Source: Patescibacteria group bacterium
Lineage (GTDB): Bacteria > Patescibacteriota > Patescibacteriia > Patescibacteriales > Patescibacteriaceae
Direction: 5' to 3'
DNA: 64,000 nt
Assembly (NCBI GenBank): GCA_030583705.1
Contig: CP129471.1
Coordinates: 610,506-674,505 of the forward strand
Positions within the stretch are counted from its first letter, which is position 1. Every line of letters begins with the position of its first letter. The notes under the pieces are model-generated. The model was not told where the DNA came from, made no database searches, and was given only the letters and a program-made list of their open reading frames with translations. The position numbers were made by a program, and so were the translations under genes. Of the stretch, positions 39,119 to 41,895 are shown piece after piece.

Positions 39119-39333
39119 TAAAAAATTCCTTATTTTATTTTTTGAAATTACCTAATCTCTAACATATAATATTAGAAAAGTCAAGGGTAAAAAAGTTGAC
39201 TTCAAGAAAATACCCCTATAACAAGCAATAAATCATATATCTTGTTATTTATAGGTTAGTCTTGCCTAAAAAAGCATAATAAATTAAACTGTAAGGTATG
39301 AAACCAAGATTATCCAAACTTTGTTTTACTCCC

Positions 39334-39372
39334 ATGGCCTTCTTTAGACAGGTGGGCTTATGGCGGGGTTAA
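39334..39372 (+). CDS. Leader peptide of the PheRS attenuator
   Basis: Twelve codons, M-A-F-F-R-Q-V-G-L-W-R-G-stop, with two consecutive Phe codons (TTC TTT, 39340-39345) just before the regulatory hairpins and the gene for phenylalanyl-tRNA synthetase. This is the same arrangement as pheM upstream of pheST in Escherichia coli, though the peptide itself is different. There is no Shine-Dalgarno sequence, as for most genes here. Confidence 0.65.
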   Translation: MAFFRQVGLWRG

Positions 39373-39414
39373 CTTCTAACTCCGACACTAAGCCCCTTGT
39401 GGGGCTTATTTTTT
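39354..39414 (+). promoter_or_regulatory. Transcription attenuator of the PheRS gene
   Basis: Terminator: TAAGCCCC-TTGT-GGGGCTTA (39389-39408) followed by T6. Antiterminator: GGGCTTA at 39354-39360, inside the leader codons, can pair with the same TAAGCCC (39389-39395) and encloses a further hairpin CGGGGTTA-acttc-TAACTCCG (39364-39384, one G-U). GGGCTTA thus occurs twice, the mark of mutually exclusive structures. A ribosome stalled on the first Phe codon would leave 39354 onward free and allow read-through; one that reaches the stop codon at 39370 covers this segment and lets the terminator form. Confidence 0.75.
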
Positions 39415-39454
39415 AAGTCTTAATACTATTAATTACCATAATAATTTAACCTTT

Positions 39455-40630
39455 ATGAACTTATACGACGCACCTCACCTAAAGAGGAACTATTACAAAA
39501 CCGACATGAGCGAACAAGAACGTCTCTTGGCTGAATTGGAACAAAAAACCGATCTAGACAGCGAACGACTAAAACGCTATATCGCCATACCTGATTTAAG
39601 TAAAAAAGAAGACAGTCCGGTAAAGATTATTACCGAAAGAGTTATTAATCTGCCAACCCTTAAGAATCTGGACATCATTGAAACCCCGGAAGTAATTACT
39701 CCTGAACTAGTCTTTGATCTTTTTAACTTCCCGAAAGACCACCCAGCTCGCAGTGCCAGCGATACCTACTTTTTAGACGAAAACCATGTCTTAAGATCGC
39801 ATACCAGCTTAATGTGGAAATATTATTTTGATATCCCGGAAATCCCCAAGAAATTAGAAGAATTTGGTTCAGTTGGTGTTTTAAGCTACGGTAAATGCTA
39901 CCGTAGAGATGAGATAGACTGGCAGCACTACAATATCCTTCACCAAATAGACGGTTTCTTTGTGGTTAAGAAAGAAATTAAAACTTTAGAACAAGCCGAT
40001 CTTGAAGCTATCTTATTAGAAGTTGCCCGCTCTTTATATGGACAAGATGTAGTCTATAATTTCCTGGTGGATCATTTCCCTTATACCGACCCGAGCCTAG
40101 AAATGAATATCCAACTTAATGGCCAATGGGTGGAAATTTTAGGGGCCGGTATCGCTCATCCTAACGTAGTACGTAATTTAGGTCTTGACCCTGAAGTATA
40201 TAATGCCTGGGCTTTTGGTTTTGGTTCGGATAGACTCGCGATGATTAAACTACAACTACCAGATATTCGGCTACTTTACTCTACCGACGAAAGAATAACC
40301 AAGCAACTTAAAGACCTAGATACTGTCTTTACACCGGTTAGTAAATATCCGCCGGTTATTAGGGACATTTCTTTTATAGTAGATAAATCTTTTGACTTAA
40401 ACATTTATTACGAGCTAGTACGAGAAATCGCCGGTTCGGAATTTGTCGAAGAAGTAAAGCTTTTAGATACCTACGAAAACGAAGAAAAGTTCGGAGCAGA
40501 TAAAACCAGCTATACTTTCCGTATTATGTACCGCCACCTGGATCGTACTCTAACCAACGAAGAAGTAGATACTAAGCATAAGAAACTAGAAGAAATTACC
40601 ATTGAACGCTTTGGAGCTGAGGTAAGATAA
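39455..40630 (+). CDS. Single-chain phenylalanyl-tRNA synthetase (mitochondrial type)
   Basis: A 391-residue class II synthetase. Residues about 70-290 are the PheS catalytic core: P-E-V-I-T-P-E-L-V-F-D-L-F-N-F-P-x-D-H-P-A-R, L-R-S-H-T-S (113-118), motif 2 Y-G-K-C-Y-R-R-D ... H-Q-I-D-G-F-F-V and motif 3 A-F-G-F-G-S-D-R-L-A-M. From about 296 (S-K-Y-P-P-V-I-R-D-I-S-F-I-V) to the end it is an FDX-ACB anticodon-binding domain, which in ordinary bacteria closes the PheT chain. No pheT follows; the next gene is on the other strand. This layout is that of monomeric mitochondrial PheRS. It lacks the long N-terminal coiled coil of bacterial PheS. Confidence 0.9.
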   Translation: MNLYDAPHLKRNYYKTDMSEQERLLAELEQKTDLDSERLKRYIAIPDLSKKEDSPVKIITERVINLPTLKNLDIIETPEVITPELVFDLFNFPKDHPARSASDTYFLDENHVLRSHTSLMWKYYFDIPEIPKKLEEFGSVGVLSYGKCYRRDEIDWQHYNILHQIDGFFVVKKEIKTLEQADLEAILLEVARSLYGQDVVYNFLVDHFPYTDPSLEMNIQLNGQWVEILGAGIAHPNVVRNLGLDPEVYNAWAFGFGSDRLAMIKLQLPDIRLLYSTDERITKQLKDLDTVFTPVSKYPPVIRDISFIVDKSFDLNIYYELVREIAGSEFVEEVKLLDTYENEEKFGADKTSYTFRIMYRHLDRTLTNEEVDTKHKKLEEITIERFGAEVR

Positions 40631-40666: not shown

Positions 40667-40698
40667 CTTAAATGCGCCACCCGGGTGGCGCATTTAAG
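40667..40698. terminator. Perfect 32-bp palindrome between convergent genes
   Basis: CTTAAATGCGCCACCC directly followed by its reverse complement, with no loop bases. It sits between the ends of the PheRS and fic genes and could stop transcription in both directions, although its T-tracts are short. Confidence 0.6.
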
Positions 40699-40727
40699 CT
40701 TAGTAAAAATAAAACCCAAAAACGTAG

Positions 40728-41780
40728 TTATAGTTTTTTGTAACGCACCGCTCTACCAAGACCAAGTCGTTCAATCTTCTTATAAGATAATAATTTAGTA
40801 AGTGCTTGATTAACTGTTGGACGAGCCACCTTGGTTTTTTGACTAATCTCTTGAGGTGTCGCTTCAGAGACAGCTTGCAGATATTGCCAAACAGAGAGCT
40901 GTTTAGGTGATAATAGTTTTTCAATATCCTGCTTATTAAGCACATCAATTGCCATCATTGACTGCTTAAGTAAAACTGTCAAGAAAAATTCCAACCATGG
41001 CGTGATATTTTCATTTTTAGTGTTAATGGTTTTTTGGCTTTGTCGCAGGGCCAAATAATAAGCGTCCTTATTATCTTCAATGATTTTTTCATGCGAAACA
41101 TAGGGCATGTAAACATAACCCTCTTTTAACAAAAAGAAGTTAGTTAAAATCCTAGCTAATCGGCCATTACCGTCTTGAAAGGGATGGATGTTCAAGAACT
41201 CCACCAAAAAATTTCCTACTACTAAAAGATGATTATATTTTCTTATCCTTAATTGTCGCTCGGTCCATTCAATCAATTCTCCCATTTCTTTCGCTGTTAA
41301 ATAGGGCGGGGTGGTTTTAAAGATAGTCCCCAAGATATTACCCTGACCATCTACCGCCTCAACTCTATTTTCATTTGTCTTATAATCACCCCTGTGCCAA
41401 CGATCTTTTTCTGAAAATAACAAAAGCTCTTTATGTAAATGCTTAATGGTACTCTCGCTAAATCTTATTGAAGGCCAATTTTCAAATAATTTGGTCAACA
41501 ATTCATAATAACCTCTCACCTCCTGTTTATCTCGAGCAGTGAATTTTTGCATAGCTAAACCACGGATAAACTTCTCAACATCCTCATCGGAAAGTTGAGA
41601 ACCTTCTATTCGAGTAGAAGCTCCGGTAGAGGTGACCAAAACTGAACGCTTTAGTCGTCCCAAAAGCTGAGCGCTTAATGACACCCCTGAAGTCCATTGC
41701 CCCCTTAAAGCTTCAATTTGGCCGACTTTCTCCCAAATACTCTCTGGCAGAGATCTTAGTCTTTTATCAAAATTTCTCAT
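40728..41780 (-). CDS. Fic-domain protein with winged-helix C-terminus (second copy)
   Basis: A 350-residue Fic enzyme when read from ATG at 41780; an upstream extension exists but would run through the operator-like repeat. Active motif I-H199-P-F-Q-D-G-N-G-R-L-A-R; inhibitory helix S55-T-R-I-E59-G60. The C-terminus (S-P-K-Q-L-S-V-W-Q-Y-L-Q-A-V-S-E-A-T-P-Q-E-I-S-Q-K-T-K-V-A-R-P-T-V) is a winged helix-turn-helix. Architecture is the same as that of the fic gene in the restriction locus, but this one stands alone. It may bind its own operator. Protein AMPylation is the expected activity. Confidence 0.9.
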   Translation of the reverse strand: MRNFDKRLRSLPESIWEKVGQIEALRGQWTSGVSLSAQLLGRLKRSVLVTSTGASTRIEGSQLSDEDVEKFIRGLAMQKFTARDKQEVRGYYELLTKLFENWPSIRFSESTIKHLHKELLLFSEKDRWHRGDYKTNENRVEAVDGQGNILGTIFKTTPPYLTAKEMGELIEWTERQLRIRKYNHLLVVGNFLVEFLNIHPFQDGNGRLARILTNFFLLKEGYVYMPYVSHEKIIEDNKDAYYLALRQSQKTINTKNENITPWLEFFLTVLLKQSMMAIDVLNKQDIEKLLSPKQLSVWQYLQAVSEATPQEISQKTKVARPTVNQALTKLLSYKKIERLGLGRAVRYKKL

Positions 41781-41782
41781 AT

Positions 41783-41816
41783 TATAATCTAATATAGTAA
41801 CATATATTAGATTATA
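41783..41816 (-). promoter_or_regulatory. Operator-like inverted repeat at the fic start
   Basis: A perfect 14-bp inverted repeat, TATAATCTAATATA and its complement, with a 6-bp spacer, ending three bases before the fic ATG. Its arms contain TATAAT-like hexamers, so it likely overlaps the promoter. The winged helix of Fic is the obvious candidate ligand. Confidence 0.6.
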
Positions 41817-41895
41817 TAAGATTATGGAAAAAGTCAAGTAAGCCGATTACTCACCCCTTATTTATAACAATTCCTAAAACAATTTATCTAAAACT

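What the first reader, a model, noticed from the sequence alone, without database searches (positions are those of the whole stretch)
39290..40630. Leader-peptide attenuator controlling phenylalanyl-tRNA synthetase in a candidate-phylum bacterium
Seen: a 12-codon frame with adjacent Phe codons (39334-39372), a terminator with T6 (39389-39414), and a second GGGCTTA inside the leader that can pair with the 5' arm of the terminator and encloses its own 8-bp hairpin. The distances fit a stalled ribosome: with the first Phe codon in the A site the antiterminator stays free; at the stop codon it is covered. Known: pheST of Escherichia coli is controlled this way. Ribosome-mediated attenuation has been described mostly in proteobacteria and actinobacteria; finding it here would widen the mechanism to reduced genomes.
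Basis: partly seen in the sequence, partly recalled or inferred. Interest (0 to 1): 0.8.

Follow-up and report, generated by a model that had tools for sequence, protein, structure and literature searches.

The report
Phenylalanine attenuator on single-chain PheRS gene
In a tiny-genome candidate-phylum bacterium, a short phenylalanine-sensing leader peptide and a switchable RNA terminator appear to turn on the gene for its only phenylalanyl-tRNA synthetase (a one-chain, mitochondria-like version) when charged phenylalanine runs short, which extends a classic control mechanism to a group where I found no report of it.

Summary
The finding holds, with one correction. The terminator (39389-39414), the duplicated GGGCTTA (39354-39360) and the internal 8-bp hairpin are all present. 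The leader peptide is 24 codons (39298-39372, MKPRLSKLCFTPMAFFRQVGLWRG), not 12, with Phe at codons 10, 15 and 16. A -35/-10 pair with a 17-nt spacer ends 7 nt before that ATG, so the leader mRNA is probably leaderless. Six other genomes carry the same anatomy in front of the same gene, with 4-8 Phe codons. Where the window's segment differs (GGGCTTA against GGGTCTA), all three RNA segments change together. In 0.76 Mb of loci (both strands) the signature occurs seven times, each before this gene, plus two background hits; none of about 28 trpS and 28 leuS loci has it. Ribosome-masked folding gives the terminator with a ribosome at the stop codon and the antiterminator with one stalled at a Phe codon, in 7/7. 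The regulated gene is not pheS: it encodes a single-chain, mitochondrial-type PheRS and is the genome's only PheRS; no PheT was found. All evidence is computational. I found no earlier report of ribosome-mediated attenuation in Patescibacteria in the open-access library searched. Verdict: real, a new variant of a known kind.

The parts
39262..39267 (+). -35 hexamer TTGCCT
   Evidence: TTGNNN-N17-TANNNT found 6-9 nt before the leader ATG in 7 of 7 loci, about 1% in shuffles
39285..39290 (+). -10 hexamer TAAACT; predicted transcription start at or just before the A of the leader ATG (leaderless mRNA)
   Evidence: 17-nt spacer, 7 nt before ATG; same in relatives
39298..39372 (+). Leader peptide ORF, 24 codons MKPRLSKLCFTPMAFFRQVGLWRG, stop TAA at 39370-39372
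   Evidence: start aligned with G003/L043
39325..39327 (+). Phe codon 10 (TTT), position shared with G003
39340..39345 (+). Phe codons 15 and 16 (TTC TTT); position 16 shared with G003
39354..39360 (+). Segment 1 GGGCTTA: antiterminator 5' arm, inside the leader ORF and covered by a ribosome at the stop codon
39364..39384 (+). 8-bp hairpin enclosed by the antiterminator, compatible with both states
39389..39396 (+). Segment 2 TAAGCCCC: pairs with segment 1 (antiterminator) or segment 3 (terminator)
39389..39414 (+). Intrinsic terminator: stem 39389-39408, T6 39409-39414
39455..40630 (+). Single-chain phenylalanyl-tRNA synthetase (tRNA-synt_2d + FDX-ACB, 391 aa), the only PheRS found in the genome

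Best explanation
It is a ribosome-mediated transcription attenuator that senses charged tRNA-Phe and controls the bacterium's only phenylalanyl-tRNA synthetase. Transcription starts at or next to the AUG of a 24-codon leader ORF with three Phe codons (leaderless initiation). When Phe-tRNA is plentiful, the ribosome reaches the stop codon and covers segment 1; segments 2 and 3 then form the terminator and transcription stops before the gene. When Phe-tRNA is scarce, the ribosome stalls at a Phe codon and leaves segment 1 free; segment 1 pairs with segment 2, the terminator cannot form, and the synthetase gene is transcribed. Shown by sequence and computation: the elements, their conservation and co-variation, and the competition between folds. 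Inferred: translation of the leader, stalling, termination in the cell, and the Phe response.
For: Phe-rich leaders before the orthologous gene: G002 MINHSFTLNFFSFPFRQRGLW, G003 MKSQNFGFKFSFTFPFTQKGLW, L044 MTIQTLRFRFFFIFFFHS, L045 MIILKVRQFGFFFSFFFPSKVGLF, L063 MLANAIKNFTNFFFSPVV, L087 MNYSLLAKGFFFAFTFPTEGCL. Phe is 38/142 residues in frame against 15 and 16 in the other frames, with a 4.6% background. Promoter with exact 17-nt spacer 6-9 nt before the leader ATG in 7/7. Segments 1, 2 and 3 vary together, with three changed-on-both-sides pairs in each helix and none in slid controls. Ribosome-masked folds switch as predicted in 7/7. Six of 50 single-chain loci detected against 0 of 56 canonical pheS loci, with 0.13% and 0.65% in shuffles. 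Unbiased scan of 195 loci: 7 PheRS leaders plus 2 background hits. The upstream gene is divergent in 4 loci, so the terminator serves no other gene.
Against: No experimental data. The window's copy has only 3 Phe codons, fewer than its relatives, and with a ribosome at Phe15/16 the equilibrium fold prefers the terminator. The covariation rests on few sequences: four distinct rows, with one pair unpaired in two rows of the terminator. Most single-chain PheRS loci (43 of 50) lack the element. The window region scores only 16.6 bits against Rfam Phe_leader, below its cut-off of 55.
Confidence: 0.88

Rival explanations
1. A T-box or other aptamer senses tRNA-Phe or phenylalanine directly, without translation, and the short ORF is incidental.
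For: Terminator/antiterminator competition before an aminoacyl-tRNA synthetase gene is also the layout of T-boxes.
Against: No T-box or riboswitch family among Rfam matches, even at relaxed threshold. The conserved part is the ORF and its promoter; the region between the segments is not conserved in sequence. Segment 1 lies in or directly after the ORF in all loci, and Phe is enriched only in frame.
Confidence: 0.04
2. The leader peptide acts as an arrest peptide that senses something other than Phe-tRNA, or stalling is general, and the Phe residues matter as nascent chain.
For: Leader ends in the genus share ...GLW; some attenuators elsewhere respond to drugs or nascent chains.
Against: GLW is encoded by the same bases as segment 1, so RNA pairing explains it. 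Leaders from other clades share only Phe richness. The regulated gene charges tRNA-Phe.
Confidence: 0.04
3. A plain partial terminator, or chance sequence in A+T-rich DNA; expression is not regulated.
For: The window copy alone has only 3 Phe codons (P = 0.09).
Against: 6 of 40,000 shuffles, the only hit in the window, seven orthologous loci with matched changes, and upstream genes that are divergent.
Confidence: 0.03

Closest known systems
Escherichia coli pheM-pheST attenuator (Rfam RF01859 Phe_leader)
   Same: Phe-codon leader, terminator, alternative pairing, control of a PheRS gene (own knowledge; PMC1262725 cites gamma-proteobacterial pheST as a classical attenuator).
   Different: No significant match to the Rfam model (16.6 bits against 55); gene is single-chain PheRS rather than pheST; leaderless leader; three segments instead of the four-segment trp-like layout (own knowledge).
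Sinorhizobium meliloti trpLE(G) attenuator
   Same: Two mutually exclusive structures, and an attenuated transcript whose 5' end is the ATG of the leader ORF (PMC7298713).
   Different: Trp instead of Phe, biosynthesis gene instead of a synthetase, alphaproteobacterium.
Mycobacterium tuberculosis ilvB1 attenuator and mycobacterial cysteine-rich uORFs
   Same: In ilvB1 a ribosome at the uORF stop masks the antiterminator (PMC13236596); the polycysteine ORFs are leaderless (title of Canestrari 2020, cited there).
   Different: Other amino acids and genes; the cysteine case is described there as translational; unrelated sequences.
Histidine leader peptides of hisS/hisZ in bacilli
   Same: Leader-peptide control of an aminoacyl-tRNA synthetase outside Proteobacteria and Actinobacteria (PMC2965389).
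   Different: His instead of Phe; Firmicutes; different sequence.
Human mitochondrial PheRS (FARS2, PDB 3cmq)
   Same: Same two-domain single chain; best structural match of the predicted model (E = 6.5e-32, TM 0.76 over 390 columns) and best sequence match in the PDB.
   Different: Bacterial gene, about 32% identical; scores below the TIGR00469 pheS_mito cut-off (221 against 258).

Membership tests
Ribosome-mediated transcription attenuator (leader peptide type) | Short ORF enriched in codons of the amino acid linked to the regulated gene | tested here: met
   38 of 142 residues are Phe across 7 leaders, against 4.6% background and 15-16 in other frames
Ribosome-mediated transcription attenuator (leader peptide type) | Intrinsic terminator between leader ORF and gene | tested here: met
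Ribosome-mediated transcription attenuator (leader peptide type) | Mutually exclusive antiterminator whose arm is covered by a ribosome at the stop codon but not at a stall codon | tested here: met
   in the window by equilibrium folding only for Phe10
Ribosome-mediated transcription attenuator (leader peptide type) | Response of read-through to charged tRNA | not testable with these tools
   needs transcripts or reporters
Rfam RF01859 Phe_leader (enterobacterial) | Covariance-model score at or above the gathering score | tested here: not met
   16.6 bits against 55
T-box riboswitch | Match to an Rfam T-box model | tested here: not met
Mitochondrial-type monomeric PheRS | tRNA-synt_2d catalytic domain fused to FDX-ACB in one chain | tested here: met
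   structure match
Mitochondrial-type monomeric PheRS | TIGR00469 pheS_mito curated cut-off | tested here: not met
   221.3 against 258.35 bits
PheS-related mystery ligase SrmL (NF051887) | NCBIfam curated cut-off | tested here: not met
   225 against 300 bits
Bacterial heterotetrameric PheRS (pheS/pheT) | A PheT beta subunit in the genome | tested here: not met
   Only a stand-alone tRNA-binding domain and the FDX-ACB of this gene match TIGR00472 in G000; single tRNA-synt_2d gene

The most novel reading that the evidence does not exclude
A single-chain, mitochondrial-type PheRS that carries its own leaderless Phe attenuator spread between Patescibacteria as a self-regulated unit: beside the normal PheST in some genomes (G613, G795), and as its complete replacement in others (this genus, G794). 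That would be a bacterial PheRS outside the heterotetramer rule, and ribosome-mediated attenuation in the candidate phyla radiation.
Probability: 0.5. Interest if true: 0.75.

Novelty: new variant of a known kind. Interest (0 to 1): 0.62.

Why it matters
It would extend leader-peptide attenuation to Patescibacteria, where genomes are very small and little gene regulation is known. It shows the mechanism in a compact form: leaderless start, 24 codons, three RNA segments. It also sits on a gene that contradicts a review statement that prokaryotic PheRS is heterotetrameric in all known species (PMC3275996): here a one-chain enzyme seems to do the whole job. Because element and gene are short and self-contained, they can be tested in Escherichia coli without culturing the organism.

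Tried and rejected
T-box or riboswitch: no Rfam support. Canonical pheS loci as further members: none of 56 carries the element. trpS and leuS loci of relatives, looking for sister attenuators: none with the signature. Other single-chain clades in the Moranbacteria family (L197-L203): no leader; several of them sit behind a tRNA-binding-domain gene. MAFFT alignment of whole leaders misplaced the segments of L044 and L045, so pairs were counted on the cut-out segments. Two background hits of the signature (L038, L077) are not upstream of PheRS and not Phe-rich.

Full report
Observation. The terminator is TAAGCCCC-TTGT-GGGGCTTA (39389-39408) plus T6. GGGCTTA recurs at 39354-39360, and an 8-bp hairpin lies between. 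The region folds better than shuffles (z = -2.74). The leader, however, starts at 39298, not 39334. Between -35 TTGCCT (39262-39267) and -10 TAAACT (39285-39290) there are 17 nt, and the ATG follows 7 nt later. The peptide is MKPRLSKLCFTPMAFFRQVGLWRG.

The gene. 39455-40630 encodes a 391-aa protein with a PheRS catalytic domain and an FDX-ACB domain in one chain, the layout of mitochondrial PheRS. The best PDB relatives by sequence and by predicted structure are human mitochondrial PheRS (model pLDDT 87.7). The genome (869,590 bases, one contig) has no other tRNA-synt_2d gene and no PheT; the only PheT-like pieces are this gene's FDX-ACB and a distant stand-alone tRNA-binding domain. A 2010 review states that heterotetramers are conserved in all known prokaryotes (PMC3275996). 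Single-chain genes occur in roughly 33 of 380 phylum-sampled and 11 of 381 class-sampled Patescibacteria (my count), usually as the only PheS-like gene. Named records for the close relatives are Candidatus Falkowbacteria, Moranbacteria and Jorgensenbacteria.

Relatives. Upstream of orthologues in G002, G003 (= L043), L044 and L045 lies the same anatomy: a Phe-rich leader, then GGGTCT(A/T), then AGACCC..GGGTCT and a T-run. L087 (different overlap: CCCCACGGAAGG against CCTTCCGTGGGG) and L063 (GACGG..CCGTC..GACGG) follow the same logic with other sequences. In the protein tree the window, G002, G003, L044, L045 and L087 form one clade (100/94); L063 lies elsewhere, next to a locus without the element. 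That suggests a second origin, or loss in its neighbours.

Statistics. A detector (terminator + complementary upstream segment + ORF with at least 3 Phe ending there) finds 6 of 50 single-chain loci and 0 of 56 canonical pheS loci, against 0.13% and 0.65% of shuffles. The promoter spacing is 17 nt in 7/7 leaders, 6-9 nt before the ATG, against about 1% by chance for each. A scan that ignores amino-acid content (promoter + short ORF at its start + terminator) gives one hit in the whole window, this one. In 195 loci it gives seven PheRS leaders and two background hits. The window region alone reaches the signature in 6 of 40,000 shuffles. One caution on method: the promoter pattern was noticed in these leaders before it was counted, so the 7/7 is descriptive, although the scans on other sequence were not tuned further.

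Covariation. Between the window and its relatives, segment 1 changes from GGGTCTA to GGGCTTA, segment 2 from TAGACCC to TAAGCCC, and segment 3 from GGGTCTT to GGGCTTA. Pair counts: antiterminator 100% paired with three pairs changed on both sides, terminator 92.9% with three; slid controls have none. The sample is small (four distinct rows), so this is support and not proof.

Mechanism. Folding with the ribosome footprint masked (A site + 12 nt downstream) gives the terminator when the ribosome is at the stop codon in 7/7, and the antiterminator for at least one Phe codon in 7/7. In the window that codon is Phe10. Because segment 2 is made before segment 3, co-transcriptional folding should favour the antiterminator; this was not modelled. 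Without translation the three-segment layout predicts read-through, unlike the E. coli trp type (own knowledge). Upstream genes are divergent in the window, G002, G003 and L044, so the terminator cannot belong to another gene.

Comparison. Works like: Sinorhizobium trpLE(G), whose attenuated RNA starts at the leader ATG (PMC7298713), and M. tuberculosis ilvB1, where a ribosome at the stop codon masks the antiterminator (PMC13236596). Member of: the broad class of ribosome-mediated attenuators by every sequence criterion tested. Not a member of Rfam Phe_leader by score. A 2010 study knew leader-peptide systems in Proteobacteria and Actinobacteria and added bacilli (PMC2965389). My searches of the open-access library found no report for Patescibacteria; subscription papers are not covered.

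Limits. Everything is computational. G613 and G795 carry both enzyme types; contamination of these metagenome bins is not excluded. The window's reduced Phe content may mean weaker control than in its relatives.

Noticed in passing
L051-L055, L059, L062, L064, L066-L068, L070, L071, L073, L074, L078, L082, L084, L197, L199, L200, L202: About 20 single-chain PheRS genes without attenuator lie just behind a same-strand gene for a tRNA-binding domain protein (two checked: PF01588; others by similar sequence), as if the PheT B2 domain survived as a separate partner. In the window's genome this gene is far away (G000:C1:747377-747706).
   Followed up: partly
G613 (L087, L118) and G795 (L045): Both genomes hold the attenuated single-chain PheRS and also a full canonical PheT: second enzyme, recent transfer, or bin contamination.
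   Followed up: partly
family f1 genomes G001, G004-G007, G010, G012: PheT in this family matches only about positions 155-766 of the model and its N-terminal tRNA-binding domain is often encoded elsewhere, so PheRS architecture is unusually fluid here.
   Followed up: no
window 40668-40699: Long palindrome around CCACCCGGGTGG between the PheRS gene and the convergent Fic-domain gene (40728-41837, minus strand); probably a two-way terminator.
   Followed up: no
L077, minus strand from 2718 (reverse-complement coordinate): Promoter + short Thr-rich ORF (MSVTHGTRAQIAFAAITLTEGACVTR) + terminator, one of two background hits of the signature scan; could be chance or a Thr leader.
   Followed up: no
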